A DNA stretch of 64,000 nt from Synaphobranchus kaupii. Taxonomy: Eukaryota > Chordata > Actinopteri > Anguilliformes > Synaphobranchidae. Under the pieces are notes generated by a model. That model was not told where the DNA came from. It did not search any database and saw only the letters and a program-made list of their open reading frames with translations. A program made the translations under genes and the position numbers. The stretch lies in NCBI GenBank assembly GCA_029718625.1, contig CM056397.1, forward strand, positions 3,992,590-4,056,589, in the 5' to 3' direction. Below are positions 6,778-64,000 of this stretch, in pieces (the stretch's first letter is position 1; every line of letters starts with the position of its first letter).

Positions 6778-8909
6778 TGTGAGGTAGGAGGGGCCAAACG
6801 CAGCAACGGGGATTCATTAAGCACTAGGCCACTACGACGGGAAACCCCGTAATTAAGGGAAGGAGACAAGACAGGGAACACACGTACCAAAGCTACTAAA
6901 CTCACTGTCACACACCAATGAGTAGAAGCGCAAATGCCAGGTTTCTCAGTAAGAAAACCAAACAAGACTAATGCAACAAATAACTGCTACCCTATACTTC
7001 TACGAGCTAAGTAACTCAGTAAAAGCGTGAACGCCCGATCTCCCAGGAGAGAGAAACATTTTACAGGCGAATAGAGCAGAGATCTGCGGTCCCATACCTC
7101 TACGAGCTAAGTAACTAAAAAGCCAGCAATAATAAATGCCTTGCCTCGGTAACGAGACACATAAGAACAGGCGAGTAGCATAATGGCAGAAATAACACAC
7201 ACCAAACGTACCAAAGCTACTAACCGGCTCACTGTAACACGCAAATAAGTATAGAAGCACAAACGCCTGGTTTCACAGTAAGAAAACCAAACAAGGCGAA
7301 TGGAACAAAGAACTGCTACCCTATACTTCTACAAGCTAAGTAACTCAGTAAAAGCATAAATGCCCGATCTCCCAGGAGAGAGAAACATTTTACAGGCGAA
7401 TAGGGCAGAGATCTGCGGTCCCATACCTCTACGAGCTAAGTAACTAAAGAGCCAGCAATAATAAACGCCCTGCCAAAGTAATGAGGCATTAGAATAGGCG
7501 AGTAGCATAAATGGTACAAATAAAACACACAGCCAACAAACCCTGCAAAATAATACAAGATAGTATACGAGGAGGTGAAAGGAACAGAGATCTAACGTTT
7601 CAAGGCTACTCTCAGATTCGCAGTCACACACAAACATGTCCACAACATCGCCCGGTCTTCCCTATAGGAAGACATGTACCGAAAGACGAAACAGAACTAC
7701 AGTTCTGAACAAAATCGCCAAAAGCTCCATGTACGGAGACAGGTACCGAAAGGAACGAACAAGACAGGCTGCACCGGACATTTACCGGCTAAAAGACTAA
7801 CGCGAGATTAGTAGAAAATAAACGCCCTACCTCTCCGTAAAGAAGAATGTAACGAGGCGACAGGAACAGAGATCCAACGTTCCACAGCTACTTCCATAAG
7901 CTCGTAGTCACACGCAGAAAACATAAAGGGGGTAACGCCCAATCTCCCAGGAGAGAGAAACATTTTACAGGCTAGCCGCCGGTAAACTGCCATCCCATAC
8001 CTTTACTAGCAAAATGACTAACACAAGCTTAGTAGAAAATACATGCCCTAGCCTCAGTAAAGGGGAGTGTATCGAGGCGAAAGGAACAGAGAGCTAACGT
8101 TCCAAGGCTACTTTCAGAGACTCGCAGTCATACACAAACATGTCCACAACATCGCCCAGTCTTCCCTATAGGAAGACATGCACCGAATGACGAAACAGAA
8201 CTACAGTTCTGAACAAAATCATCAAAGCTCCATGTACGGAGACAGTCACCGAAGGACGAACAGGACATTTACCGGCTAAAAGACGCGAGCTCAATAGAAA
8301 ATACACGCCCTGCCTCTCAGAATAAATAAAGCCCTACCTGTCAGTACGATAAAAACGCCAGGTCTCTTAGTAAGAAATGACTATACAAATACACCCACAA
8401 ACAAACAAAGACTCCTCTCGCTTTCACGGAAGAAAGCAAACAGAGAGAGGAGGAAGAGACAGAGAAGGCAAAAGGATCTAGGCAACGGAAGAAATGAAAA
8501 ACCAGGAAGCGGAGACAGAAAAGAGCCAGGGGGGAAAAGTCCTAATATATCCACAAAGGCAAGTCCCGCACTACTCCAATAAAACACTCTGGAGCAAAAA
8601 TGGTCTCCTAAAAAACCTAGACCTAATCGTACTGGCTAAGCAATCAAAGGGCAAAATAATACCACACACAAGATAATGCAAATAATGCCAGACAATACAA
8701 ATAATGCCAGACAATACAAATTAATATCAAAGCCCAGAACGGAGGAAAACATGGGCTTAAATAGCTCCAGGGTAACCACGCACAGTTGTGATGCTGAGAG
8801 AAACTCCGCAATCAAGACGGGGTAGAGCAAACATCCACTAAAAGGGCAGCGCCCTCGCGTGGCTACCAAGGAAACCGACCGCAAGGGAAAAAGGGTCAAA
8901 ACCATGACA
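6778..8909 (-). repeat. Long solo LTR of a Gypsy-type element, copy 1
   Basis: Read on the minus strand the unit starts TGTCATGGTTTTG (at 8909) and ends CCTCACA (at 6778), giving TG...CA ends. It has a TATA-like TATTTAAG at 8763-8756 and, exactly 30 nt after its first base, GCTTTGATATT. Downstream of that are several imperfect tandem blocks about 320-590 bp apart. One begins GATCTCCCAGGAGAGAGAAA at about 7038, 7361 and 7940. Another contains CTTCCCTATAGGAAGACATG at about 7660 and 8161. No coding sequence is attached. A diverged copy in the other orientation lies at 26.35-28.02 kb. I find no clear target duplication, so the boundaries are good but not proven. Confidence 0.6.
8756..8763 (-). 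promoter_or_regulatory. TATA-like box of solo LTR copy 1
   Basis: TATTTAAG on the minus strand lies exactly 30 nt upstream of a GCTT that is shared, at the same spacing, by three other LTRs in the window (TATA-like boxes at 22864-22871, 26481-26488 and 50697-50704). Confidence 0.5.
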
Positions 8910-16840: not shown

Positions 16841-17994
16841 TGTAGGGACAATAAGAACTACAAGTCCATACAGTCCACAGGAGGCTCCTCCTCCACGTTG
16901 GAAGTGACGTAGGACGTTGTACCAGTTGTGATTTCCGCACTGTAACGTGATCCTGCACAGCGGAATGCGCGACTGGCAATAAAGTTTATATGTCGGGGCA
17001 ACACAGCCAGTTCTACCCAGTTCTTCCCGCAGTTTTCTTCCGGGCCAGTTGTCCACTGAACGTGTCTCGTCTCTGGGCCCGTGAGGCCTGGAGCACGCCC
17101 GGGGTCCGAGCCCTCGCTCTACAGGAAGCATCGACCGTCCGTGACGTCGACCCAACCAAGCGAGGCGGGCTCATCTACCCCTGGCTATCAGCCACGGAGG
17201 ACCGGAGACGAGGCGCAAGGAGGCAACGCGAGCACCCGGTGGTGAAGAAGAACCACCAAGTGGACCACACAGCCACTGTCCTGCAGAAAAGCACCACCAG
17301 TGAGTCCCCAAAGAGGCAAGCGGTCTGCAGCAGGATGATGCTGCATAGTTCGGGAGAGATAATGCGACCGGTTCCATTATCCCGTAAGAACGACGAAAGA
17401 AAGCTGTTCCAGGGACCCAAGATGAGGCGGACGTTTCCCCTATCTTTCACAACCCCTGCGAACTCGTCACAACAGAATCAGGGCGACCAGATTTCCCCTT
17501 TTCACTGTGAGTGTGTGATCCAACGGAGGAACCAATTTAACGGACTTTAATTCAAGTAAGACTGTAACATGGGCAATAGCGTATTAGTTAGCAAAAGAAA
17601 CATGTTTGTGACTGGATGTATGTAACTGCTATTGAAAGGTTAATGTGTTCTGTAAAAGTTTTGTGTTACCGTTTTACTTTGGATGGTTTTATGCCATCCA
17701 CCGCGCTGCGTTAGGTTTAATGCATCCACGCACAGAGCGTATCTTGCATGCGATCTATCTTTAAACACTAACCAGCCGTAATCCTAACACTGCACGCTGA
17801 TCTCAACGCACACGCATTTAAGCTTACGGCTATCCCTTATGTGTGTGGTATGGTTCATGCACCGCCATTAGCTAGCTCCAGCAAAAGCTAGTTTCAAACC
17901 TCCCTCCATCTTAGTTTCTTTGTTCTCATTGAACACGTGTCCTTGGCAACCCTCACACGTAGGAGAACATGGAAATTCCACACACGCCCAACGC

Positions 17995-18051
<57 letters not shown>

Positions 18052-18624
18052 TTTGTTGTACATTATAGTAGTGAATCGTGCCTTGCTCTGTTTGGTACTT
18101 TGTGTTCAATAAACTATTACATTTATCCAAGATTGCCTGTATTAATGTTGCTCTTGTGTTGAACTGAATCAGCCAATGCTAATCGCAGGGATTCCCCAAA
18201 ATGCCTTCACCTTCTAGCTGGATCATTTATATTAATTCGGTATCAACTGAGTACATGATATTGCGATTTTGCTAAGACAATTATTAATGTGTAATTTTAT
18301 TGGTAATTAATTTAATTATTAATTGAAGTTACCCATTTTTAGTTAGTATATTCTCTTTTGAGAATAATATATAAATTTTATGAGACTGATTTATAATACA
18401 AAACCATGCCACCAGTTGTATAAGGATGGTAGTGGCGTATCGCAGTACATAAGTGACGCCCCGTGTATAAATAGAGTTATGTCCCCTACATTTTTGGTGC
18501 CCCGCGTACGGACTCTGATGATTGAGAGATCATGTTACTGATCATCTTGCTCACTGCTATCAGACTCGTACCTGGTCGCTACATTTTGGTGACTCGTGTA
18601 TTAATTAAATGAATATTCCCTACA
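16841..18624 (+). repeat. 5' LTR of the nested element
   Basis: It is bounded by TGTAGGGA and TCCCTACA. It contains an (AC)n tract at 17996-18048 and a TATA box TATAAATAG at 18466-18474, only about 150 bp from the end. AATAAA occurs near 16979 and 18107. Near the end CTACATTTTTGGTGCCCC-type motifs recur at about 18487, 18584 and 18619, as if the LTR end plus primer site had been copied more than once. ORFs on both strands inside it are repeated in the other LTR and show no motif. Confidence 0.85.
18466..18474 (+). promoter_or_regulatory. TATA box in the nested element's LTR
   Basis: TATAAATAG is present in this LTR and is kept in the second LTR (near 21900). It is the best promoter candidate for this element. 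Confidence 0.5.
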
Positions 18625-20294: not shown

Positions 20295-22059
20295 TGTAGG
20301 GACAATAAGAACTACAAGTCCATACAGTCCACAGGAGGCTCCTCCTCCACGTTGGAAGTGACGTAGGACGTTGTACCAGTTGTGATTTCCGCACTGTAAC
20401 GTGATCCTGCACAGCGGAATGCGCGACTGGCAATAAAGTTTATATGTAGGGGCAACACAGCCAGTTCTACCCAGTTCTTCCCGCAGTTTTCTTCCGGGCC
20501 AGTTGTCCGCTGAACGTGTCTCGTCTCTGGGCCCGTGAGGCCTGGAGCACGCCCGGGGTCCGAGCCCTCGCTCTACAGGAAGCATCGACCGTCCGTGACG
20601 TCGACCCAACCGAGCGAGGCGGGCTCATCTACCCCCGGTTATCGGCCACGGAGGACCGGAGACGAGGCGCAAGGAGGCAACGCGAGCACCCGGTGGTGAA
20701 GAAGAACCACCAAGCGGACCACACAGCCACTTGTCCTGCAGAAAAGCACTGCCAGTGAGTCCCCAAAGAGGCAAGCGGTCTGCAGCAGGATGATGCTGCA
20801 TAGTTCGGGAGAGATAATGCGACCGGTTCCATTATCCCGTAAGAACGACGAAAGAAAGCTGTTCCAGGGACCCAAGATGAGGCGGACGTTTCCCCTATCT
20901 TTCACAACCCCTGCGAACTCGTCACAACAGAATCAGGGCGACCAGATTTCCCCTTTTCACTGTGAGTGTGCGATCCAACGGAGGAACCAATTTAACAGAC
21001 TTTAATTCAAGTAAGGCTGTAACATGGGCAATAGCGTATTAGTTAGCAAAAGAAACATGTTTGTGACTGGATGTATGTAACTGCTATTGAAAGGTTAATG
21101 TGTTCTGTAAAAGTTTTGTGTTACCGTTTTACTTTGGATGGTTTTATGCCATCCACCGCGCTGCGTTAGGTTTAATGCATCCACGCACAGAGCGTATCTT
21201 GCATGCGATCTATCTTTAAACACTAACCAGCCGTAATCCTAACACTGCACGCTGATCTCAACGCACACGCATTTAAGCTTACGGCTATCCCTTATGTGTG
21301 TGGTATGGTTCATGCGCCGCCATTAGCTAGCTCCAGCAAAAGCTAGTTTCAAACCTCCCTCCATCTTAGTTTCTTTGTTCTCATTGAACACGTGTCCGTG
21401 GCAACCCCCACACGTAGGAGAACATGGAAATTCCACACACGCCCAACGCGACACACACACACACACACACACACCCACACACATAGTTTGTTGTACATTA
21501 TAGTAGTGAATCGTGCCTTGCTCTGTTTGGTACTTTGTGTTCAATAAACTATTACATTTATCCAAGATTGCCTGTATTAATGTTGCTCTTGTGTTGAACT
21601 GAATCAGCCAATGCTAATCGCAGGGATTCCCCAAAATGCCTTCACCTTCTAGCTGGATCATTTATATTAATTCGGTATCAACTGAGTACATGATATTGTG
21701 ATTTTGCTAAGACAATTATTAATGTGTAATTTTATTGGTAATTAATTTAATTATTAATTGAAGTTACCCATTTTTAGTTAGTATATTCTCTTTTGAGAAT
21801 AATATATAAATTTTATAAGACTGATTTATAATACAAAACCATGCCACCAGTTGTATAAGGATGGTAGTGGCGTATCGCAGTACATAAGTGACGCCCCGTG
21901 TATAAATAGAGGTATGTCCCCTACATTTTTGGTGCCCCGCGTACGGACTCTGATGATTGAGAGATCATGTTACTGATCATCTTGCTCACTGCTATCAGAC
22001 TCGTACCTGGTCGCTACATTTTGGTGCCTCGTGTATTAATTAAATGAATATTCCCTACA
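20295..22059 (+). repeat. 3' LTR of the nested element
   Basis: This is a direct copy of 16841-18624 with the same TGTAGGGA/TCCCTACA ends. Differences that I see are scattered substitutions and a shorter (AC)n tract (21451-21484), so the insertion is fairly young. ACTG follows at 22060-22063. Confidence 0.85.
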
Positions 22060-26344: not shown

Positions 26345-28021
26345 CGCCTTTTTACCATGCGGTCGTTTTCCTCGGTCGCCACACGTGGGCGCTGTACTTT
26401 TAGTGGAGTTTTGCTCCGCCTCTTCTCTTTCACGGAGTTCTCTCATCAGCGTCTACATGTGTGTGTGGATGCCTGAGAGCTACATAAGCCCCTACTTTCC
26501 TACTTCCAGGGCTTCAATATTATTTTGAATTATTTCGCACTGTTGGGTGTGTGTTTATTTGTACCATTATGTTACTCGCCTGTTCTTACGCTTCTCGTTA
26601 CTAAGGTAGGGCGTTTATTATTTCTGGCTCTTTAGTTACTTAGCTTGTAGAAGTGTGGGACCGCAGATCTCTGCTCTATTCGCCTGTAAAATGTTTCTCT
26701 CTCCTGGGAGATCGGGCGTTTACGCTTTTACTAAGTTACTTAGCTCGTAGAAGTATAGGGTAGCAGTTCTTTGTTCCATTTGCCTTGTTTGGTTTTCTTA
26801 CTGAGAAACCAGGCGTTTGAGCTTCTACTCATTTGCGTGTTACAGTGAGCCGGTTAGTAGCTTCGGTACGTTTGTTCCCTGTTTTGTCTCCTTCTCGTGG
26901 ACTACGTTTCCCCTTTGTTGTGAGTCAGGGTTTTTTATTATACTGAGAGGCAGGGCGTGCTATTTTCTATTAAGCTTGCGTCAGTCTTTTAGCCGGTAAA
27001 TGTCTGGTGCAGATGTCCTGTTCGTCCTATTCGGTACCTGTCTCCGTACATGGGGCTTTGGCGATTTTGTTTGGAACTGTAGTTCTGTTTCGTCCTTCGG
27101 TACATGTCTTCCTATAGGGAGACTGGGTGATGTTGTGGACATGTTTGCGTGTGACTGCGAGTCTCGGAAAATAGCCTTGGAACGTTAGCTCTCTGTTCCT
27201 TTCGCCTCCTCGTTACATTCCCCTTTACTGAGAGGCTAGGGCGTGTATTTTCTACTAAGCTTGCGTTAGTCATTTTGCTAGTAAAGGTATGGGACGGCGG
27301 TTTACCGTCGGCTCGCCGATAAAATGTTTCTCTCTCCTGGGAGATCGGGCGTTTACCCCCTTTATGTTTTCTGCGTGTGACTGCGAGCTTATGGAAGTAG
27401 CCATGGAACGTTGGATCTCTGTTCCCTGTCGCCTTCTCATTACATTCCTGAGACGCAGGGCGTTTATTTTCTACTAATCTTGCGTTAGTCATTTAGCCAG
27501 TAAATGTCTGGTGCAGCTGTCCTGTTCATCCTTTGGTACCTGTCTCCGTACATGGAGCTTTGGTGATTTTGTTCGGAACTGTAGTTCTGTTCGTCCTTTC
27601 GGTACCCTTCTCCTCTAGGGAGTTTGGACGTCTTTGTTGACATATGTGCGTGACTGCGAGTCTATTAAAATAGCCTTGGAACGTTAGATCTCTGTTCCTT
27701 TTGCCTTGTCGTTACCATTTCACATTAGTATTTTGTTTCTTCACTGTTTTGTATACGTTTTGAGTACTCAGTGTTTTTTTTTAGCTCGTTGTGGTTTCCG
27801 AGCTCGAGACACTTTGCTTTCGTATGACGTTCGCCCGGTTATACGGGTCATTTTTAGTTACGCCCCTTTTTTCCTAGTTCCCGTATTTCCCTCCAGTGAG
27901 AGTAGGAACTAGGTTATTTGCGTTTCTTTATATTTCCTTATATACGGGGTCTCTCCGTCTCAGTGGCTTTTAATTAAGCTTAATGAATCCCCTTGCTGCA
28001 TTTGGTCCCTCTAACCTCACA
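26345..28021 (+). repeat. Long solo LTR of a Gypsy-type element, copy 2
   Basis: This is a diverged copy of 6778-8909 in the opposite orientation. The promoter segment (26361-26530), the GATCTCTGCTC/CTCTCTCCTGGGAGATCGGG blocks and the end (GAATCCCCTTGCTGC ... CCTCACA at 28021) all match. The TGTCATGG start is not recognisable, so the left limit is approximate. TACATAAG at 26481 is followed 30 nt later by GCTTCAATATT. No coding sequence is present. The 8-mer GTCATGCC follows the LTR end in both copies. Confidence 0.6.
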
Positions 28022-39689: not shown

Positions 39690-40220
39690 TGTAAGAGCCA
39701 AAACCAGTGAAAATATATTTTGAATAGATTTCTATATTTTGTATAATATAATTTAGTATTTGATCCATAAGTGAATATAGCGAAAGAACAGAGAATTTAA
39801 GTCTTTATATATTGATAGTTTATTGGTTAGTTTAGATCTTCATACTGCGCATGTGTAGAAACCTAAAAGCTAGCACCTAGAATTAATGATTTTGCGATGA
39901 GACAAGGTGCGCGCAGTATAGAAGCATACAGCTTTTTGACCGTCATCCTAGCCTGTTCCTTTACTAAAACCAAAGACTGTTAGACAAAGAATGATGTACT
40001 TACCTGCTGGGTCGTGGATCCTGTTGGATTGATGATTGCCGAACCTGAAAAATAAAACGATCAACATTATTCACGGAGTCCTGAGTAAGTAGCCTGCATC
40101 ATAGCTTGTGGATAAGTTAGCATGGATAGCCTATGGATACGAGTTAGAACCCTTCTACTGCCCACGTTGAGAGAAGTGGCTTAATTAAGAAACTAAACAA
40201 ACTGAAAATTTGCCACTACA
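39690..40220 (+). repeat. 5' LTR of the BEL element
   Basis: TG...CA ends; nearly identical to 46546-47076 (the differences that I see are at about 39877, 39967 and 40196). Confidence 0.95.
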
Positions 40221-46545: not shown

Positions 46546-47076
46546 TGTAAGAGCCAAAACCAGTGAAAATATATTTTGAATAGATTTCTATATTTTGTAT
46601 AATATAATTTAGTATTTGATCCATAAGTGAATATAGCGAAAGAACAGAGAATTTAAGTCTTTATATATTGATAGTTTATTGGTTAGTTTAGATCTTCATA
46701 CTGCGCATGTGTAGAAACCTAAAAGCTAGAACCTAGAATTAATGATTTTGCGATGAGACAAGGTGCGCGCAGTATAGAAGCATACAGCTTTTTGACCGTC
46801 ATCCTAGCCTGTTCCTTTACTAAAACCGAAGACTGTTAGACAAAGAATGATGTACTTACCTGCTGGGTCGTGGATCCTGTTGGATTGATGATTGCCGAAC
46901 CTGAAAAATAAAACGATCAACATTATTCACGGAGTCCTGAGTAAGTAGCCTGCATCATAGCTTGTGGATAAGTTAGCATGGATAGCCTATGGATACGAGT
47001 TAGAACCCTTCTACTGCCCACGTTGAGAGAAGTGGCTTAATTAAGAAACGAAACAAACTGAAAATTTGCCACTACA
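46546..47076 (+). repeat. 3' LTR of the BEL element
   Basis: It is preceded by a purine-rich AATTAGGGGCCGGAAA, the likely polypurine tract, and followed by GATAC. Confidence 0.95.
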
Positions 47077-50922: not shown

Positions 50923-51238
50923 CTAATGAGTGCTGGGTCCAAGATGTTCTTGGAGGGGACCCCAGCAGTGCTCCTCAGGGCCATAGCCCTCCCAGTCCAC
51001 TAAAAACTGGGCACCTCTGCCCACACGCCTCTCGGCCAAAATACGCCGAACGGTATAGACCGGATCTCCCTCCACGAAGCAGGGAGGGGGCGGCGGCTTG
51101 TCCGCTGGGACGAGAGCGCTCACAAGCACCGGCTTCAAACCGGGAGACGTGGAAGGTAGGATGGATACGCATAGAGCGTGGTAGCTGAAGACGCACAGTG
51201 ACCGGGTTAATCTTGCGGATTATCTTAAAGGGACCCAC
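50923..51238 (-). pseudogene. pol: Gypsy C integrase C-terminus and chromodomain
   Basis: One frame has [20 protein letters not shown] and HPTFHVSRF, the integrase C-terminal module. The other (51138-50923) has [20 protein letters not shown] and [15 protein letters not shown], a chromodomain with its aromatic residues. Known: the chromodomain directs integration to methylated histone regions. A frameshift near 51140 separates the two parts. Confidence 0.85.
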
Positions 51239-51241
51239 GAA

Positions 51242-51650
51242 TCACGGCGCGAGTTTGAGGGACTCCACGTGCAGGTCCTGCGTGGACAGCCACACTCGTT
51301 GCCGACCTCGGTAAGAGGGGGCCGGATGACGGCGCTTGTCGGCCACAACTTTTTGCTTGGCCGTGGCACGCAGGAGGGATGCGCATATACGCCTCCAGAC
51401 AGATCGACACTGGGCGCTGCGATCTGACACCACGTTCAGGGGGAGACCGTGCACCCTAAACACGTGATCAACCATCAGCTGCGCTGTCTCTGGTGCTGAA
51501 GGCAGTTTGGGTAGCATGATAAAGTGAGCCGCCTTGGAGAATTTGTCTACGACCACTAAAATCACCGTGTTACCCTAAGATGCAGGCAACCCGGTGATGA
51601 AGTTGAGAGCAAGGTGACTCCAAGGATGGCTGTGAATGGGCAGGGGGCAC
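51242..51650 (-). pseudogene. pol: Gypsy C integrase core, internally deleted
   Basis: From the right it reads [15 protein letters not shown] (first Asp position reads Asn here) and, after a stop at about 51573, ILVVVDKFSKAAHFIMLPKL and VHGLPLNVVSDR (second Asp). The sequence then jumps, within SVWRRICASLLRATAKQ, to the region well after the third catalytic residue. The segment with the Glu is deleted. Confidence 0.82.
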
Positions 51651-54600: not shown

Positions 54601-55136
54601 ACAATGCAAAAGGCAACAATCAGAGAGGCTATAATGCATGCACCCATACATGTCATGCACACAACATATCCATATCTTTTATTTTGTCACATTTTTTGTT
54701 TGCTTCTCTTTTGCTATTTCCTGGGAAATTTGGTGGACAAATGTCTTCTGACACATAAACATAATTCAGTACTTGCTTTTTTGTAAGCTTGTAAGTAGTA
54801 TATAGCATACGGCAAATGTCAAAATTTGATTGATCAGCATATTTGCATATTTTATGAATATTAATGAGGTTATGAAAAAATTGTTTGATGGGTATAAAAA
54901 AATAAATTTAAATTTTTTAATTATAATTTTTTAATTATTTTTAATTTATAATGTATTATTATTCAGGGTGTTGTGGGGGGGTTGATTTATTGGCATTGTG
55001 ATTATGTCATTTTATTGGGGGGGTGTTGTAAACGTTGGTTTTTATGGTTGGTATTTGGGGGGTGCTTGGGGGAGGAAAACATGTTTAGGATTTTTTTATT
55101 TTTTTATTAGAACAACATTGTGAAAAAAGTAAGGTG

Positions 55137-55167
<31 letters not shown>

Positions 55168-55180
55168 AATGTATAGGTTA
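51661..55180. other. Gene-poor region with simple repeats
   Basis: About 3.5 kb. I find no ORF with a recognisable domain. It holds an (AC)n tract at 52231-52262, A-runs at 52057-52131 and 53370-53383, a G run at 53632-53645 and G-rich sequence at 54050-54120. AT-rich DNA follows at 54880-55130 and (TA)n at 55137-55162. CACTGCAAAAAATGTG near 54271 resembles the end of a common fish MITE, but no partner end is visible. Confidence 0.45.
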
Positions 55181-55896
55181 GTGGCAATAGTTTAAGTTTT
55201 GTGTTAGCAGAAGCGTTTTAAAAGAATAAAAGAATTCAAGCAGGCTGTTAAAACGTGACAAATAGCGGTAGGCTATAGCGAGTTAATTGTCTGAAAGAAA
55301 GCATACCATTTTTAAAATAATGTTTGTTAGAGCCGAAGGGAAAAAGACTCTAACAAATGATGTCCGTGAAATGTGTGCGAATGACTCCATAGCCAAGGAC
55401 TTAGAATTTTTTGCCAAAGTCCGCGTGGCAATAGTTTAATGTTTGTGTTAGCAGAAGCGTTTTAAAAGAATAAAAGAATTCAAGCAGGCTGTTAAAACGT
55501 GACAAATAGCGGTAGGCTATAGCGAGTTAGTTGTCTGAAAGAAAGCATACCATTTTTTAAATAATGTTTGTTAGAGCCGAAGGGAAAAAGACTCAAACAA
55601 ATGATGTCCGTGAAATGTGTGCGAATGACTCCATAGCCAAGGACTTAGTATTTTTTGCCAAAGTCCATGTGGCAATAGTTTAAGGTTTGTGTTAGCAGAA
55701 ACGTTTTAAAAGAATAAAAGAATTCAAGCAGGCTGTTAAAACGTGACAAATAGCGGTAGGCTATAGCGAGTTAGTTGTCTGAAAGAAAGCATACCATTTT
55801 TTAAATAGAGCCGAAGGGAAAAAGACTCTAACAAATGATGTCCGTGAAATGTGTGCGAATGACTCCATAGCCAAGGACTTCAAATTTTTTCCAAAG
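55181..55896. repeat. Three tandem 244-bp repeats near the Maverick end
   Basis: Units start at 55181, 55425 and 55669 (GTGGCAATAGTTTAA). The first two are 244 bp and nearly identical. The third lacks about 10 bp after TTTTTTAAAT. Each contains GCAAGCAGGCTGTTAAAACG-type sequence and the block AGAGCCGAAGGGAAAAAGAC. Known: Maverick termini often contain subterminal tandem repeats. Confidence 0.9.
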
Positions 55897-56710
55897 TCCG
55901 CGGGGTTCCGGAGATGGCCTATAGTTTTGCAGAGAGACGTTTCCAGAGAGAGATCCTTCCAGATGGCAAGAGTGCGGACAAATGGAGCCATTAGTTTATC
56001 GGGCCTGTGTAAACTGAAAATGGGATACGCCCCTGTAGTGTCCGTCTGTTTCTTTTGAAATTGACGGACGTTTACACGGGCCAATGAGCTGTATCGCTTA
56101 TGTCAAGCCGGATTCTGATGGCTAACAACAACTGGTGTGGGGGCTGCTGACGCTATGCGATGCTAGGGGAAACCTTTGATTGACAAGGAACAGCTGTATT
56201 CCTGGCGGGGTGATTACAAAAGTACGTTTGAATTGAATGAATGAAATGCATAGACTAGAAATATTTCAACAGGCCACAAAAGGACCCAATTGATCGTGGA
56301 AAAGCCATTGAAAAGGCGTCTATATACCCCCCAGGCTAATGTTTTTTTTCACTGGTCAGCTTCATGAAAGAAACCTTTCAGTATTTTGTACAAGGTTTTG
56401 TAATAGGGTAATACTTAGAGCCAATATGAGTGTTTAGTATCTATGGGTTACTAAAAAGATCGGGGTTACTAAATTTAAGCAGGATTGAGATATTATATAC
56501 AGCCTATATTGTGTAAGCGTAACTCTTTCAAAGTGTATTTTATTTTTCAGGGTGTCTACAATTCACATCAGGGGGGGTCTGAAGATCGGAACAGCTGCGA
56601 GTTTACGCTGACCACAGGGTTCAGTTTGTATATACGACAGACTTTTTGAGTAGGTCTATAGCCGAAACAGACGTTGACACAATCGCCTGTAAACAACCTG
56701 CAAAAGAAGC
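55897..56710. other. Maverick subterminal non-coding region
   Basis: About 800 bp between the repeats and the first gene. Short frames on both strands cross the last repeat unit, but I see no support for coding. Confidence 0.5.
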
Positions 56711-57377
56711 ATGTCTACCGCAGAAAACTCAACACTGAAATCTCCAGAGGTTGTGGCTAACAATACCGTTTTGCGAAGGCCAAAAAAACCTTTTGCCGCG
56801 ATGTCAAGACTTCAAGGACATTCACTTTACAAAGAATGGCCGGCGGCATGTTCAAAACGGCGATGTGGGTACGATATCAACACGTCTGGCGAGGAACCAA
56901 CAATTACCCTTTTCAACCTGTGTGAGGGGAGTTGTACAGTGAAAATTCAGAGTCTGTATTATTTGTGCACAAGGACTGGCTTAAATTCAAGCAATGTTCC
57001 AAAAATGTTGTGGACGATGTACATTATATTTGTAATTTTCTGAGCTGTTCGGAGGACTGCAGCATGATCTGTGTGTCAGCGCTCAAAGCGCCTAAAAAAA
57101 ACTGTTCATTGCCGAGACCTATGAATCAAGAGACATTGGGGATACGCTAATTGTATTTAATTTTGACGACCAGCACATGTTGAACAAGGCTATTGAGCGA
57201 GCCGATAAGGTGTTTGAGGATCATAGGATTTGGAGAAATATGGACGATGTGAAAACTAACTTATTGTCGAGTTTCAACGCCGTGGCTGAAGATTCTGATG
57301 AAGAAAAAGAAAATGTCCCTCCACCAACAACACCCGTTGTCTCTGATGACGAAGACTCTACAAAAGGTTTTGTGTAA
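56711..57377 (+). pseudogene. Maverick gene of unknown function, three lesions
   Basis: The start is ATG 56711. The protein-like signal moves between frames. The first codons are in one frame up to an A7 run at 56782-56788. Next is a second frame with a TGA at 56923 and the Cys-containing stretch WLKFKQCSKNVVDDVHYICN. After an A8 run at 57094-57101, a third frame reads IVFNFDDQHMLNKAIERADK and ends in an acidic tail with EKENVPPP at 57377. An AATAAA follows at about 57487. I do not recognise the family. The tail EKENVPP-type motif and the acidic stretch suggest a nuclear or regulatory protein, which is inference. Confidence 0.55.
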
Positions 57378-57697
57378 ATAACTTGTCAAAACATGTAAGC
57401 AAAAAATGTTTTTAAATTTTTTAGATTGTGTGTGTTTACTATAAATGTATACAGAATGTCTTTTTGATTGATTTTGTGAACTTTAAAATAAAAAAGCCTT
57501 TCTTTTACATGCTATTTTACGTATTGTTTCATTATTATTATTATTATTATTAATCGTTAAAATATGTTAAATTCAAATCAAACCCAAAAAAGGAAGGCCC
57601 CACCCAGATCAAAAGTTTTAAGGCGTGGCTATACGTTTCAGAGGGGTTTAATAGCCACTCGGCAATCTCAGGATTTCATACAGACTTTACAGACCTC

Positions 57698-58447
57698 TTG
57701 ACAAGCATGTCTCAGGGCGGTTATAAAATGTATAACCCCCTACAGGTGGCCGATTGCTCAGAATCTTGGGAGTCTGAGTATTCAGCGAACAATGACAAAC
57801 CTGCTACAGAGCCTTGGATCGATATCGACAAAGCCGAAGCCCTATTTTTATTAGAGCCAAAATCTATGGTCTACGAAGACGAAGGCTGTGAGGTGCCAAA
57901 CGGTGTACAACAGTCCAGCCAAAAAACCCGCCCGGGGTGTATAGACGACGAAATCGACGGGTGTCCTACAAGCCCGATGATTAAGCTGCTGAAAGCCATA
58001 GTCGCCTGTCTTCTGAATGGCGCTATCGAAAAACAACTGAGAAGCGAATGTCCCGGCTGTGAAGTTGACCACCCCAGTCAACTGAGACACAGCTGTCTCT
58101 TTGAAACGGAGGCGTATTATTTTAAATATAATTTTGACAAATTCCTGACAAAAGTGAAGAAACCCTGGCTGCGCCCTCTGCTGGTCAAGGCCTTGAAAGT
58201 GTTCGGAGTGGTACCAGATCCTGTGAGAATCTTGGGGTCTGTTGACACCACTGTTTCAGAACTCCGTGAGGAGCCACACATCAGGGAAAAACTGCTGGAA
58301 ATCTTACGTACAGACCTTGACCCGGGCAGTGAGAAGGCTATTGCGGCTGTCAACACAGATTTATGGGAGATTGACGGGGCAATGCAGGAGCACCTGTGGT
58401 GTGATCACTCTGAAGGCGTGCGGACCCGGATGAACGACAACGTTTAA
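57698..58447 (+). CDS. Maverick protein of unknown function with Cys/His motif, intact
   Basis: This frame of 249 codons is uninterrupted. It begins at ATG 57698 (or 57707) after a short leader, and AATAAA follows at about 58525. Residues 118-133 carry C-x2-C-x3-H-x5-H-x-C (CPGCEVDHPSQLRHSC), a possible zinc-binding cluster. It is followed by an aromatic segment (ETEAYYFKYNFDKFL) and helices up to residue 230. The N-terminal 80 residues are acidic. It sits between the first gene and the integrase, on the same strand. It is the only Maverick gene here without visible damage. I cannot name a function. Confidence 0.65.
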   Translation: MTSMSQGGYKMYNPLQVADCSESWESEYSANNDKPATEPWIDIDKAEALFLLEPKSMVYEDEGCEVPNGVQQSSQKTRPGCIDDEIDGCPTSPMIKLLKAIVACLLNGAIEKQLRSECPGCEVDHPSQLRHSCLFETEAYYFKYNFDKFLTKVKKPWLRPLLVKALKVFGVVPDPVRILGSVDTTVSELREEPHIREKLLEILRTDLDPGSEKAIAAVNTDLWEIDGAMQEHLWCDHSEGVRTRMNDNV

Positions 58448-58578
58448 AACGTTTCAAGAACCGGTTAAATGTTAATATATGCAATTTCTGTCATGTAACC
58501 TGTAACTTTTTTTTAAAAATACATAAATAAATACTTTGGTTTTTTATATATTGCGCCATTATTGTGATAGCTGTAAGG

Positions 58579-59460
58579 ATGGCTGGTGAGAAACGCATGA
58601 AAGATGTTTATTATGCTCCAGAAAATCCTGGTTCTTACGATGGTAAAGAGCGTTTGCAAAGGGTTTTACGTGAAACAACAGGTAGTAACATATCAAACAA
58701 GAAAGTTACGGACTGGTTGTCGGGGGAAGATGCATACACTTTACACAAGCCCATCAGAGTCAATTTCAAAAGAAGGGTTATTGTGAGAAACATTGATTGA
58801 CAATGGCAGCTTGATTTAGTAGACATGTCAAGTTTATCTGAGCATAATGATAATATGAAGTTTATGCTAACTTGTATAGATATATTGTCAAAATACGCCT
58901 GGGTATGTGTTCTTAAAAACAAGACAGGTATCGAAGTGGTAAAAGCCCTTCAAGAAATTCTCGCAAATGGATGTATACCTAAAAAAATACAAACCGATAA
59001 AGGTAAAGATTTTTTCAATAAAAGGTTTCAGAGTCTGATGAAACGCAACAAAATATTCCACTTTGCCACAGACAACGATGATGTGAAAGGTCTCTTTCCA
59101 AAAAGATCTAACAAGCTAACGTTTAAGTAGGGGGACACAGTCAGAGTTTCCAAAGTACGCGGAAAGTTTGCAAAAGGTTATGAGCAAATATATACAGACA
59201 AATATTTTACAGTCGTTGAAAGGGTCCACAGAATCCCTCCTGTATATAGATTGAAGGATTATGATGGGGCGAGCATTGACGGAACATTTTATGAGGAGGA
59301 ATTACAAAAGGTTATAGTTGGAAAAGACAAAACCTTTAAGGTCGAAAAAATAATAGCCGAAAAGAAGCATAAGAACCAGAAACACGTTTTAGTGAAGTGG
59401 GTCGGATGGCCTGAAAAATACAACAGCTGGATACCTAAAGATAGTGTGATTGACATCTAA
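58579..59460 (+). pseudogene. INT: Maverick integrase with chromodomain, internally deleted
   Basis: The start MAGEKRMKDVYY at 58579 fits Maverick integrases (LKDxYYxPxxPGSY type). The N-terminal part (NKKVTDWLSGEDAYTLHKP) is followed by an in-frame TGA (58798-58800). The core then has LDLVDMSS (first Asp) and QTDKGKDF (second Asp). Directly after ATDNDD the frame jumps to FPKRSNKLTF, so the segment with the catalytic Glu is missing. After a TAG (59128-59130) the SH3-like part and a chromodomain (VEKIIAEKKHKNQKHVLVKW, VGWPEKYNSW) follow and end at 59460. Known: this enzyme inserts the element with 5-6 bp duplications. This copy cannot. Confidence 0.88.
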
Positions 59461-59484
59461 AAGAGTAGAAAACATTAGGTCGCC

Positions 59485-60015
59485 ATGGAGGAAGCAGGCT
59501 TTTATGCCACTCTCCCCAGTAATGCCAGTCTAGATATTTACCCTGGAAACAAAATTTCGAGTTACACTACAAAGTTTGCGAGACCCCTCGAATTTCGTGG
59601 ACAATGGGAAGTTGCTTTAGCAGAAATTCAATACCCATGTACATGGAGTATGCTATCAAATCATGAAAATGCTTTTATCGTAAGTGATGATAAGAAAAAG
59701 GAACTCAGCTACGTTGTTGTAATAAGCTGGGGCTATTACAAGAACATGAAAACGCTAGTGGAGGAGATGAATAAAGCTTTAAAAACAAGAAAATTGGATA
59801 TTGAGGTGTCCCATTCAGCAATGAAAAACCAAATTTATATTAGTAGTGTAAACGAAAATATTTACACTACGGCGAGTAACACTTTTGAGTTGCTCGAACC
59901 CATACATGCAGACATGTTTTTTCAGGAGAGAATACTTATAAATGGAGTCGATATAAAAATTAAGATGGTCCGTTGTAAGGATGAGTTCTGTCTAATGAGC
60001 GAGGATGCCCCGTAG
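59485..60015 (+). pseudogene. Maverick capsid-type proteins, probable fusion by deletion
   Basis: The start is ATG 59485, 25 bp after the integrase. Residues 1-130 (FYATLPSNASLDIYPGNKIS, WEVALAEIQYPCTW) belong to a family found in animal Mavericks, regarded as a virion protein. Residues about 135-176 (PIHADMFFQERILINGV, KMVRCKDEFCLMSE) instead resemble the middle of the other Maverick capsid-type family (F54H12.2-like in databases). Inferred: a deletion joined the front of the first gene to the middle of the second. The frame ends at 60015 and the second family goes on in shifted frames. Confidence 0.6.
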
Positions 60016-60443
60016 CAGCAGCAATACCGTCTTAAAATGGTCTCGGCCACACTATTTGTAAAAAATATCGGGGACTCTCCACCCGTTAAGCTCGGGCTCT
60101 ACTGACATCAAATGTTAAATATCCGATTGACCGTGTTAGTCTTAAAACTTTCAGTTTAGCAGCTGGTCTTAGGGTTTGCAATCAAGAAAATTTGTTTTTG
60201 GGTCAATTACCGAAATCTATCATTATAGGTTTGGTAGATAATGACGCCTTTACAGGTGTTTACAACAAGAACCCTTTCAATTTCCAACATTACAACGCAG
60301 AATATGTATCACTGAGTATGAATGGTCTTCCGATACCGAGTAAGCCATATCTCCCAAATTATGGTAACGGTTCTGCGGTTCGCGGATTTTACAGCCTAAC
60401 GCTGGCCACAGGAAGGCATCTGAAAGACCGGATAATAAACTAA
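60016..60443 (+). pseudogene. Maverick capsid-type protein (F54H12.2-like), broken continuation
   Basis: In shifting frames the sequence reads ATLFVKNIGDSPPVK, then, from about 60190, LGQLPKSIIIGLVDNDAF and YNKNPFNFQHYNAEYVSLSM, then GLPIPSKPYLPNY. These are typical of the Maverick F54H12.2-like family, likely a capsid protein. It ends at 60443 after ATGRHLKDRIIN, well before the expected C-terminus, and protease sequence follows at once. A second deletion is therefore likely. Confidence 0.65.
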
Positions 60444-60449
60444 ATAATT

Positions 60450-60923
60450 TACCAGCATTGTACATTGTGAATACACACCCTCGAAATAAGCCTGGAGAAC
60501 ACTGGTTAGCGTTGTATGTGTGTGCGGATAAAAGTCAACTCCTATGGCAATCCCCCTGACTACATTTATTTCCCAGATAGCATCATTACTTTTTTACAAA
60601 AGAACTGTAAAAGGATTGTTTACAACAAGGTACAAGTGCAAGACCTACACAGCACAAAGTGCGGACAACATTGCGTATTTTATCTGCACAACAGGGCCAA
60701 AGGGGTTCCGTTTAGTGAAATTATATCCCTATATTCTGATAATTTGAAAAATAATGATGCGATGGTTTCAAGATATGTTGATAAAATATACTTGGACAAG
60801 TGTGTTAAAAACATGTTAAACTGTGTACAGACTGCATGCTGTGGTGAAATGTTTAAGGCCTGTCACATGCATGTTTTGTTTGAATGTTGCTTTGTCTTTT
60901 ATTATAAAATAAAAACATTTTAA
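60450..60923 (+). pseudogene. PRO: Maverick adenain-like cysteine protease, frameshifted
   Basis: The upstream frame (about 60447-60550) reads LYIVNTHPRNKPGEHWLALY, with the catalytic His in GEHW. The downstream frame, 60516-60923, reads NSYGNPPDYIYFP and then STKCGQHCVFYL with the catalytic Cys. A frameshift lies at about 60515-60545. The position of the catalytic acidic residue before SYG reads Asn in the downstream frame. The N-terminal part is missing. Known: this protease matures capsid proteins in adenoviruses and Mavericks. An AATAAA at 60907 ends the unit. Confidence 0.82.
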
Positions 60924-60967
60924 ACTTTACATTTTGATCATTTAAAACAAACACACACTCAACAGCT

Positions 60968-61795
60968 TCAGAAATCTATCCATGCTGAGTGGTCTAAAAC
61001 GGGGGATGAAAAAACTGCCTTAGGGCCTGGTTCTGGCGTCATAGGTGTAAAGGCTGCTGTATTTGGTATTTTTTTGTGTAGATTTATCTTGCCGCGCACA
61101 TTTTGATTAGGTATGACAGAAATAGGCATATTAAGCATAGCCATAGCCTCTATAAATTCCCCCCAACCCCGGGGTCTTCTATCGTCAGAAATCTTGTGAG
61201 GCGCTGTTATGTTCTTTATTAGATCCAACATATGCGAACCACTTACAACTGTACCATTAAACACAAACTCCCCTTTATCGTTCCACGTTGCGACATTTCC
61301 TGATTTAGAAATTTTATCCAATACGTCGGTGGCATTTTTCCGGCTTCTAGGTGGCACGCTTTGTACAAAATCTTCAACTCGGGCGGTGTCCGTCCTGACA
61401 TTATTGCGGCCCTCAACAGGCAATGATAGCGTTAAATGTTGCATTTCGGCTTTACCTTGTTTAACCAACGCTATGATACGCTGTAGAGCAATCGTGTACA
61501 GTTTTGCCTTCTCATGAGGACCAACATTAGTCCTTGATAAGATGTTACGTATGGTTTGATCCAAATCATTTTCAACAGTTTGTCAGATTGGTTCCGGGGT
61601 AAAAGTAAGATTCTTTAATTTGTCCAGCTGGCTTAGAGGCACGAGAAACATTTTTTGGGCATGCTCCATGTTTTTTAAACACCGCTGCGACCCGCTATCA
61701 AACTGGTGAGAAACGGTATTGCGACACTCAGTAGAGGCAGAAGAAATCCGCCCTTTTGAGAAATAATTTTTCGCCTCTTTCGAATAGATGATCAT
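60968..61795 (-). pseudogene. Maverick conserved protein of unknown role, one in-frame stop
   Basis: The gene begins at ATG 61795, overlapping the end of the upstream gene by 4 nt (ATGA). It is open except for a TGA at 61583-61585. Features: KMFLVPLSQLDKLKN near residue 50-65, DQTIRNILSRTNVGPHEKAKLYTIALQRII (written here as adjoining motifs, residues about 78-110), a Ser/Arg-rich segment (VPPRSRKNATDVLDKI), and WGEFIEAMAMLNMP near residue 210. The first two motifs are common to a gene family in animal Mavericks. A structural or packaging role is guessed from its neighbours only. It converges with the protease gene, with 44 bp between the two stops. Confidence 0.7.
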
Positions 61796-61984
61796 TTGTT
61801 AATCAACAGTTTAATTCCGACCTTTTGTTTTCTTATTTTTTTCAGTTGTGTATCTGTTAGGGGTATATTGCCATGTAAAACATTGAGAGCTAGTTCACAA
61901 ATTGTGTTTATAAGTTCACCAGAAGCAGACTGTAATATGTTACGTCTTTGCCGGGCATTACCTTCAAATAGGGCTTTTAGAAAC
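61792..61984 (-). pseudogene. Maverick small basic protein, 3' part (gene split by LINE)
   Basis: The minus-strand codons FLKALFEGNARQRRNILQSA and VLHGNIPLTDTQLKKIRKQK match a small, basic Maverick protein family that I know only as conserved hypothetical. It runs up to the LINE tail at about 61985. Its beginning lies on the other side of the LINE, at 63090. Confidence 0.7.
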
Positions 61985-63066
61985 ATTACATTTACATTTA
62001 GTCATTTGGCAGACACTCTTATCCAGAGCGACGTACATTAGTGCATTTTCCAACTTGAAACAAGTGCGTTAAAACAACCCTAAAAGGTAAATACGATTTC
62101 AAACACCAGGCGCAGTCAGTTTGATTTTGTATTTTTTATTTTTATTTTTTTTGGGGGGGGGGGGGGGGCGGGGGACCACACAATATCAATCATTGGCGTG
62201 TACAACAGTAAGCCAATAAGTAACCTTAAGTATTAAACTAGCAGCTTGAACCACTTAAACAAGGATTCAGAAAAACACAATCAAGGGAGGTCACAAGGAG
62301 GTAGGGAGGGGTGGAGAGAGGTGCAGCTTGAAGAGGTGAGTCTTCAATCTGCGCTTGAAGGTGGTCAGACTTTCTGTTGTTCTGACCTCCACGGGGAGCT
62401 GATTCCACCACCGTGGGGCCAGGACAGACAGACGTCGAGACCGGGTGCTAGTATGAAGTGGGGGGGGGGGGGGGGGGGGTACCAGTCGTTCTGAGGAGGC
62501 GGAACGCAGGGATCTGGTAGGTGTGTAGGGTCTGATGAGCTTTTGGAGGTATGGAGGGGCTGATCCTCGGACTGCCTGGAAGGCGAGCACCAATGTTTTG
62601 AATTTGATGCGAGCCATCACAGGTAGCCAGTGGTGGTCAATGAGCAGGGGGGTGACATGGGAGTGTCGGGGGAGGTTGAAGACCAGGCGCGCTGCTGCGT
62701 TCTGGATAAGCTGAAGGGGTCTAATGGCCGATGCTGGCAGGCCAGCCAGGAGAGAGTTGCAGTAGTCCAGGCGGGACAGCACCATCGCTTGGACCAGGAG
62801 CTGGGTTGAGTGGGTGGTGAGGAAGGGACGGATTCTCCTGATGTTGTACAGGAAGAACCTGCACGCCCGGGTTACCACTGCGATGTTCTCGGAGAGGGAC
62901 AGCCTGTTGTCCATCACCACTCCGAGGTTCCTGGCACAGGGCGTTTGGGTCAGTGGAGTGTCCCCTAGGGAAATGGAGAGATTGAGAGGGGGAGAGGTTA
63001 GAGCAGGAATGTAGATGAGCTCAGTCTTGCCTGGATTGAGCTTCAGATGGTGGTTGTCCAAGTTCA
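61985..63066 (-). mobile_element. L2-type LINE, 5' truncated, inserted in the Maverick
   Basis: Minus strand: RT C-terminal ORF (63061-62291), then a 3' UTR with G-rich runs, then the L2 tail with GTCGCTCTGGATAAGAG and ATGTAA repeats ending at about 61985. It cuts the small basic gene of the Maverick. I found no sure target duplication. Confidence 0.85.
62291..63061 (-). CDS. L2-type LINE reverse transcriptase, C-terminal part
   Basis: The frame of 256 codons is open. It reads LKLNPGKTELIYIPAL (thumb side of RT), NLGVVMDNRLSLSENI, LSRLDYCNSLLAGLP, LQLIQNAAARLVFN, LVLAFQAVRGSAPPYL and WWNQLPVEVRTTESLTTFKR, all hallmarks of L2 RT C-termini. The catalytic YADD lies upstream of the truncation point and is absent. 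A Pro run (residues about 195-202) corresponds to the G run at 62460-62479. Confidence 0.88.
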   Translation of the reverse strand: MDNHHLKLNPGKTELIYIPALTSPPLNLSISLGDTPLTQTPCARNLGVVMDNRLSLSENIAVVTRACRFFLYNIRRIRPFLTTHSTQLLVQAMVLSRLDYCNSLLAGLPASAIRPLQLIQNAAARLVFNLPRHSHVTPLLIDHHWLPVMARIKFKTLVLAFQAVRGSAPPYLQKLIRPYTPTRSLRSASSERLVPPPPPPPLHTSTRSRRLSVLAPRWWNQLPVEVRTTESLTTFKRRLKTHLFKLHLSPPLPTSL

Positions 63067-63090
63067 GTTCCGTTTAATACGTGCAGACAT
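63067..63090 (-). pseudogene. Maverick small basic protein, 5' part
   Basis: ATG at 63090-63088, reading MSARIKRN, one nucleotide after the stop of the ATPase gene. The L2 LINE then interrupts. The basic start fits the family to which the 3' part at 61792-61984 belongs. Confidence 0.65.
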
Positions 63091-63091
63091 A

Positions 63092-63741
63092 TTACTTTTT
63101 CTTTAGCACATAAACTACCGGCCACTCTGGAGCGTACAAACCAGTTCTGATGCGGTATTCCTCAGGCGTCTGTGCTTTTAAGTCCACCAATAGGTAACCA
63201 TAAGGTTTTCTGGTCGCATCATCGAAACATTCAAGGAAAAACTTTGAATGTCTGGGGTACATTTGCCGTGCCAAAACATTAACTTGCATTGTATCTCTTG
63301 GATTTTTGAACAGAACAATATAGTTTGCATTAAGATTTATTGTGCGGCTGCTTCGACCCTGGAAGAAAAGATTCTGAACAAGATATATGATGCTTAGGTT
63401 TCTATGGTGTGTATACTTGCTAAAAGCTCTCTCAATTTCAGAGCTCTGACTGGCCGCCTGCATAAGGTCATCAACAATTACCATATTGGTTTTATGCAAA
63501 GGTAGCAAAACTTCATCGGTCAAAGATTCAGGAAGACCTTCTACAAAATGTACATTCTTTATTTTACAAAGCACCATACAATGTTCTGCGGTACTGTTGA
63601 CAATACATGTTGTGCATTTTCGAGCAGTGTTTTCACAAAAACGCTTTTACCGCTGTTTTATGGACCTGAGATTATGCATGAAAAAGTATGTTGAAGGCGG
63701 TTGTCAAAACCCTCAACCCCAAACACTTGTCTAGAATCCAT
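63092..63741 (-). pseudogene. ATP: Maverick packaging ATPase (FtsK/HerA type)
   Basis: The start ATG is at 63741 and overlaps the end of the polymerase gene by 11 bp. The P-loop is present as NSGKSVFVK, but the codon directly before it is a TAA (63658-63660, codon 28). A frameshift near 63578-63590 leads to the frame 63577-63092, which has NMVIVDDLMQAA (Walker B with DD), a sensor-type region (SIIYLVQNLFF) and a conserved C-terminus. Known: it drives DNA into the capsid. The gene ends at 63092, 1 nt before the next ATG. Confidence 0.88.
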
Positions 63742-64000
63742 ATGGCAAGGTTTTGAAATCAGGGCGCAGGACCCTTTTGTTGTAAACTACTCTGAATCTT
63801 TTAGAAACTAAGCGATTGCGGAGAGAGAATCCTCTCATTCCTCACAATTTGTTTTGTGTTTGTTGTAATTTCACGAGCTGGGGCCTCTGGATTCTGTACA
63901 TAGTGCTGTACCAATTCTGTGAGGGATGAAAGATTGACAACTTGCGTGTTAGTATGATGCAGGATTATACCTTTCACTTTCATGCATGTTTTACCTAACC
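63731..64000 (-). pseudogene. POLB: Maverick DNA polymerase B, C-terminus
   Basis: The minus-strand frame 63983-63801 reads VKGIILHHTNTQVVNLSSL, which matches the C-terminal domain of protein-primed Maverick polymerases. After a shift near 63801-63812 a second frame reads FRVVYNKRVLRPDF and ends in LPYGF, the typical last residues, with the stop at 63731. The palm and exonuclease lie outside the window. The stop codon overlaps the start of the ATPase. Confidence 0.78.

What the first reader, a model, noticed from the sequence alone, without database searches (positions are those of the whole stretch)
55181..64000. Degraded Maverick/Polinton with virus-type gene set
Seen: integrase plus chromodomain, capsid-type families, adenain-like protease, packaging ATPase with P-loop and DD Walker B, and the polymerase B C-terminus, within 9 kb. 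Known: these genes together define Mavericks, which are related to adintoviruses. Inferred: this is one half of an integrated element. It is the nearest thing to an unusual system in the window, and its other half should lie to the right.
Basis: partly seen in the sequence, partly recalled or inferred. Interest (0 to 1): 0.85.

Follow-up and report, generated by a model that had tools for sequence, protein, structure and literature searches.

The report
Decayed fish Maverick with both ends
The stretch is the left half of a 16.5-kb virus-like mobile element (a Maverick, or Polinton) that inserted into an animal chromosome and then broke down; the kind is known, and the same genome holds many sister copies, some nearly identical to one another.

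Summary
The finding is real and correctly named. The window lies in a held 1.5-Gb genome, so the right flank could be read. polB, with the palm motifs DFTSLYP and DTDS, lies just right of the window. An inverted copy of the left end lies there too. The true left end is 54794, not 55181: it begins AGTAGT, the right end closes ACTACT, and CTTGTA flanks both as a perfect 6-bp target-site duplication. The element is 16,550 bp with the vertebrate Maverick layout of two convergent gene modules. This copy is dead: a private deletion fuses penton to major capsid gene, further deletions hit integrase and capsid/protease, a stop interrupts the ATPase P-loop, and an insert of about 1.1 kb separates ATPase from PM. 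Its family is large: 154 ATPase matches, including a subfamily in which 8 of 20 fetched loci, on six contigs, share one identical 1,083-bp stretch. Two accessory genes have no recognised relative; one shows purifying selection between subfamilies. New member of a known kind; interest modest.

The parts
54788..54793 (.). 6-bp target-site duplication CTTGTA, left copy; the right copy is L012 7344-7349
54794..56602 (+). left terminal inverted repeat, 1,809 bp, begins AGTAGT; right arm is L012 7343-6002 (1,342 bp), ends ACTACT
   Evidence: at nine other sites the shared sequence begins at the same AGTAGT and the outside differs
55181..55912 (+). three tandem 244-bp units inside the left TIR; the right TIR has one unit
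56711..57377 (+). accessory gene A, broken into several frames here; one 226-aa frame in sister copy L019, which has no Pfam, PADLOC or PDB match
57554..58447 (+). accessory gene B, 297-aa stop-free frame with a Met at 57707; conserved CPGC-x4-H-x7-HSC motif; 134 matches in the genome
58580..59460 (+). integrase (rve core plus chromodomain), broken by stops and a deletion of about 190 bp at 59089/59091
59479..60012 (+). fusion frame: N-terminal part of the minor capsid (penton) gene joined to the middle of the major capsid gene by a private deletion near 59870
60010..60428 (+). major capsid protein gene, middle part, frame-shifted; 3' end removed by a deletion of about 325 bp at 60427/60428
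60428..60923 (+). adenain-type protease, 5' end deleted, frame-shifted
60971..61798 (-). PZ gene, interrupted by an in-frame stop
   Evidence: 32% over 227 aa, 1.5e-42 to L001
61678..62001 (-). PM gene in two pieces
   Evidence: 48%, 1e-17 and 63%, 1e-10 to L001 4816-5157
61984..63064 (-). insert of about 1.1 kb between ATPase and PM, absent from three sister copies compared; carries a 260-aa frame that looks like the tail of a LINE reverse transcriptase (L2 type, from recall)
63095..63700 (-). packaging ATPase; P-loop interrupted by a stop at about 63646-63666
63734..64000 (-). C-terminus of DNA polymerase B; the rest is in L012 2-3724 on the minus strand

Best explanation
This is one integrated, non-functional copy of a vertebrate (probably ray-finned fish) Maverick/Polinton, 16,550 bp long (G000:C22:4047383-4063932). 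Shown: both TIRs, end motifs, a 6-bp TSD, the two convergent modules, and breakage that sister copies do not share. Inferred from the established biology of the family: a virus-like parent replicated its linear DNA by a protein-primed family B polymerase starting at the AGTAGT ends. Its integrase inserted the DNA with a 6-bp staggered cut. The capsid, protease and ATPase genes served particle formation. After insertion this copy decayed: deletions in integrase, penton/major capsid and capsid/protease, stops and frameshifts, a LINE-like insert, and probably a tandem expansion from one to three 244-bp units in one TIR. The family itself went on in the same genome, with a second subfamily that multiplied recently.
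For: Right flank holds polB in four blocks, with Pfam DNA_pol_B_2 on four of seven pieces, two of them over cut-off. Inverted TIRs. TSD and end motifs, and a perfect 6-bp TSD in 7 of 9 sister elements tested. PolB-ATPase-PM-PZ order as in L001. Damage not shared: 1 of 40 scored matches spans the penton/MCP junction, namely the window. 11 of 11 sister loci keep the integrase segment. Young subfamily: 20 of 20 fetched copies have a 227-aa ATPase frame and fall into 12 distinct 1,083-bp sequences, one shared by 8 loci. ATPase dN/dS is 0.049 between the window and that subfamily.
Against: The double jelly-roll fold of the major capsid piece was not tested; its identity rests on sequence and gene order. 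PW was not identified: no PW reference was at hand, and its expected place is deleted. In L002 and L003 the same genes stand in order but all on one strand, unlike the window. 2 of 9 sister elements lack a perfect TSD.
Confidence: 0.97

Rival explanations
1. It is an endogenised adintovirus in the narrow sense, a free-living virus that integrated, rather than a transposon-like Maverick that spreads inside genomes.
For: The best named vertebrate ATPase relatives are called adintoviruses. Chromodomain integrase and capsid genes are present. The ATPase is under strong purifying selection between subfamilies (dN/dS 0.049), as expected if virions were needed.
Against: 154 ATPase matches in one genome and eight identical 1,083-bp stretches at different sites show amplification in this germ line, though repeated reinfection could also give that. 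The two names overlap heavily for vertebrate elements, so this is mostly a matter of labels.
Confidence: 0.3
2. The copy was mobilised when already defective, by proteins of intact sister copies, so the gene deletions are older than this insertion.
For: TIR arms are similar (12 of 934 aligned positions differ in the inner block, 23 of 622 in the outer), yet many genes are broken.
Against: The penton/MCP fusion is found in 1 of 40 scored matches, the integrase deletion in 0 of 11 sister loci, and the insert in 0 of 3 sister loci compared. The capsid/protease deletion was compared with one sister copy only. So the damage looks private and later.
Confidence: 0.05
3. Chance assembly of unrelated retroelement pieces that look like a Maverick.
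For: rve and chromodomains also occur in gypsy elements, and a gypsy-type fragment lies at 50978-51574.
Against: TIRs, TSD, gene order, polB and ATPase homology.
Confidence: 0.01

Closest known systems
Vertebrate Mavericks (Barreat and Katzourakis 2021, PMC8097293)
   Same: Two convergent modules (polB-ATPase-PM-PZ against int-minor capsid-PW-major capsid-protease), flanking accessory regions, 5'-(AGT)2//(ACT)2-3' ends, 6-bp TSD, size near the reported mean of 16,862 bp for intact elements
   Different: Left TIR of 1,809 bp is longer than the 46-1,447 bp reported there for intact elements, through two extra 244-bp units; PW not identified and parts of both capsid genes deleted; the accessory genes found no relative in my searches
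Adintoviruses of vertebrates (Terrapene box turtle and Astyanax cavefish adintovirus)
   Same: ATPase 63% and 65% identical; chromodomain integrase
   Different: Here a multicopy family with this copy decayed; the OTU-like polB N-terminus and hexon reciprocity that define adintoviruses were not shown
Mavirus and adenovirus pentons (PDB 6g41 and others)
   Same: The model of a homologue (P0121, aligned with the window frame) matches the mavirus penton best, E 1e-6, TM-score 0.48 by query
   Different: 13% identity; model only of medium confidence (pLDDT 63); fold similarity, not membership

Membership tests
Maverick/Polinton | protein-primed family B DNA polymerase | tested here: met
   family B homology; protein priming itself is inferred from the family
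Maverick/Polinton | rve-type integrase (with chromodomain in this clade) | tested here: met
   both over the Pfam cut-off
Maverick/Polinton | genome-packaging ATPase | tested here: met
   559 of 585 candidates at E <= 0.01
Maverick/Polinton | adenovirus-like protease | tested here: met
   sister copy L090 over cut-off, with weak PDB matches to adenovirus proteases (E 0.23-0.38); the window's own pieces are below threshold
Maverick/Polinton | single jelly-roll minor capsid (penton) | tested here: met
   on a homologue's model; the window keeps only the N-terminal part
Maverick/Polinton | double jelly-roll major capsid protein | tested here: inconclusive
   sequence and position match; no Pfam hit, no PDB sequence hit of note, no fold prediction made
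Maverick/Polinton | TIRs with AGT/ACT end motif | tested here: met
Maverick/Polinton | 6-bp target-site duplication | tested here: met
   7 of 9 sister elements
Maverick/Polinton | two convergent gene modules | tested here: met
   compared with PMC8097293
intact (autonomous) Maverick | eight core ORFs intact | tested here: not met
   integrase, capsid genes, protease, PZ, ATPase and polB are broken; PW not identified
Adintovirus | polB with OTU-like N-terminal domain | tested here: inconclusive
   no Pfam match in the N-terminal 432 aa; definition from PMC11071296 passages
Adintovirus | hexon reciprocally recognised by BLASTP | not tested
   no named adintovirus hexon was at hand

The most novel reading that the evidence does not exclude
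The genome carries a Maverick subfamily that was mobile until very recently or still is: near-identical ATPase stretches at many sites, 20 polB rows in open frames of 1,349 aa or more, and 64 rows with a stop-free 242-aa ATPase frame among the listed matches. It brings two accessory genes without a relative in my searches; gene B encodes a probable metal-binding protein kept by selection, possibly acting on the host.
Probability: 0.4. Interest if true: 0.5.

Novelty: new member of a known kind. Interest (0 to 1): 0.3.

Why it matters
It settles a blind prediction: both halves, both ends and the target site are in place. It adds a genome with older and very young Maverick copies side by side, which lets decay, subfamily replacement and selection on individual genes, including unnamed accessory genes, be measured in one host. 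It does not change what a Maverick is.

Tried and rejected
Accessory gene B: none of 898 candidates from 5.8 billion proteins scored E <= 0.01; nothing in Pfam or PADLOC (with the L019 relative); one weak PHROG (0.078); weak PDB hits to the zinc finger of a Rab exchange factor (0.021 and 0.036). Its single-sequence structure was useless (pLDDT 38.8). IMG/VR scans with ATPase, its alignment, penton and gene B found no relative. The penton frame found few relatives: 5 of 20 candidates. The whole-stretch distance of the window to the young copies (about 158 of 999) is not used, because the window stretch there included the insert; the codon comparison replaces it. The LINE label of the 1.1-kb insert rests on recall: Pfam gave nothing and the genome search for its copies did not complete. 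The terminal search (39 of 40 long matches start at query base 1, one at base 12) began at the supposed end, so it does not by itself show the edge; one search does. Dating is rough: 12 of 934 and 23 of 622 TIR positions differ (the two blocks share one right-arm unit). At teleost rates of 3-7e-9 per site per year (recalled) that is of the order of 2-4 million years, if the arms were identical at insertion.
Full report
Observation. Pfam finds the integrase core (1.7e-9) and the chromodomain (9.5e-11), both over cut-off. For the ATPase, 559 of 585 candidates match; box turtle and cavefish adintovirus FtsK proteins are among the best. Contaminant Maverick contigs in bacterial metagenome bins, L001-L003, gave the rest by local comparison. 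PM and PZ follow the ATPase on the minus strand, as in L001. The major capsid piece 60090-60440 matches the ORF after the penton in L003. L002 and L003 hold the same genes in order but on one strand. The two polB C-terminal pieces score above 1000 of 1000 shuffles each, although plain BLASTP missed the longer one. The minor capsid family, modelled on the homologue P0121 with the window frame in the alignment (pLDDT 63), has the mavirus penton as its best solved match (E 1e-6, TM-score 0.48 by query) and adenovirus pentons next. The protease is only weakly visible in the window (0.13), but the unbroken frame of a sister copy passes Peptidase_C5.

The other half. The window is C22:3992590-4056589 of a 1.5-Gb genome. 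In the next 9.9 kb (L012), polB lies on the minus strand in four blocks that together match residues 20-1188 of a 1,277-aa reference with small gaps. DNA_pol_B_2 is found on four of seven pieces, two over cut-off, and DFTSLYP and DTDS are there. The inverted copy of the left end is at L012 7343-6002. The left TIR measures 1,809 bp, the right one 1,342 bp. The difference is mainly the 244-bp unit, three times on the left and once on the right. Nine sister pairs of ends were fetched: all 18 begin or end with the same AGTAGT/ACTACT, the sequence outside differs from site to site, 7 of 9 have perfect 6-bp TSDs, one differs at one base, one does not match. A genome search with the terminal 386 bp, begun at that base, gave 49 matches; the 40 long ones start at query base 1 in 39 cases, the window's own two arms included.

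Damage. The penton/major capsid fusion looks private: of 40 scored of 386 candidates only the window spans it, and 39 match from the capsid side alone. The deletion of about 190 bp in the integrase is absent from 11 of 11 sister loci. A third deletion of about 325 bp removes the end of the capsid gene and the start of the protease relative to one sister copy, L090. The ATPase P-loop carries a stop. An insert of about 1.1 kb between ATPase and PM is absent from three of three sister loci compared. So this copy seems to have decayed after it arrived; the scored matches do not show it being copied in this state.

The family. Accessory gene B has 134 matches (132 scored of 461 candidates); in 11 of 11 sister loci that I compared it sits upstream of the integrase. 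The ATPase has 154 matches (150 scored of 462 candidates). Counted by hand from that list, which says that some matches are not shown, 64 rows have a 242-aa stop-free frame, and 27 rows share one score of 350.8 bits. I fetched 20 of these 27. All 20 have a 227-aa frame from a methionine. They form 12 distinct 1,083-bp sequences; eight loci on six contigs (three of them on C9) share one. The mean pairwise difference is 3.2 per kb over 190 pairs. Gene B of 14 copies of the young type is more varied: 15.1 per kb, 16 of 91 pairs identical. A search with the window copy's polB N-terminus gave 105 matches (97 scored of 537 candidates), 20 of them in open frames of 1,349 aa or more, six of these with a stop inside the matched stretch. 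Whole-element intactness was not assembled or tested. The published survey reports up to 38 intact copies in one fish and up to 287 copies in all in the axolotl (PMC8097293), so this family is large but not outside the known range.

Selection. Between the window and the young subfamily the ATPase has dN 0.008 and dS 0.164 (L050 and L053, ratio 0.049); against three other copies the ratio is 0.19-0.53 (L047-L049). For accessory gene B the ratio is 0.30-0.40 against 14 of 14 young copies compared, and 0.39-0.84 against six others. Against the sister loci L015-L025 it runs from 0.27 to 1.46 (11 loci), which fits decay among older copies. These are Nei-Gojobori estimates from few differences in the closer pairs. 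So gene B was probably a working gene of the family, less constrained than the ATPase. Its conserved CPGC-x4-H-x7-HSC stretch suggests a metal site; that is a motif reading, not a test.

Verdict. This is a vertebrate-type Maverick, correctly recognised from raw sequence, with wrong left coordinates and its own set of lesions. Papers: PMC8097293 was read in parts 1-3 of 8 and searched for passages; PMC4028283 and PMC11071296 were seen as passages only; others only as search listings.

Noticed in passing
G000:C10:43720850-43794931: Three copies of the young Maverick type lie about 30-33 kb apart on one strand (accessory B, ATPase and polB rows), as if a Maverick-bearing segment were tandemly repeated.
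   Followed up: no
G000:C3:46407791-46413188: Two polB matches of identical score face opposite ways within about 5.4 kb, suggesting an inverted duplication or a palindromic derivative of a Maverick.
   Followed up: no
L001, L002, L003: Maverick genes on contigs filed in bacterial metagenome bins (Photobacterium, a tubeworm endosymbiont, a mussel symbiont): probably host DNA left in the bins.
   Followed up: partly
50978-51574: Fragment of a gypsy-type integrase on the minus strand with Tf2-1-like SH3 domain, just outside the Maverick.
   Followed up: no
39690-39989 and 46546-46845: Direct repeat, 99% identical, 6,856 bp apart, like the LTRs of one retroelement.
   Followed up: no
16841-18298 and 20295-21733: Three 300-nt stretches repeated about 3.45 kb apart at 97-99% identity, perhaps one longer duplication.
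   Followed up: no
6901-8267 and 26555-27603: Several inverted repeats with arms about 19 kb apart, 87-93% complementary.
   Followed up: no
L012:4790-5214: A 200-bp unit repeated 2.1 times in the right accessory region of the element.
   Followed up: no
61984-63064: Insert with long G-runs and a frame that looks like a reverse-transcriptase tail splits the ATPase-PM interval.
   Followed up: partly
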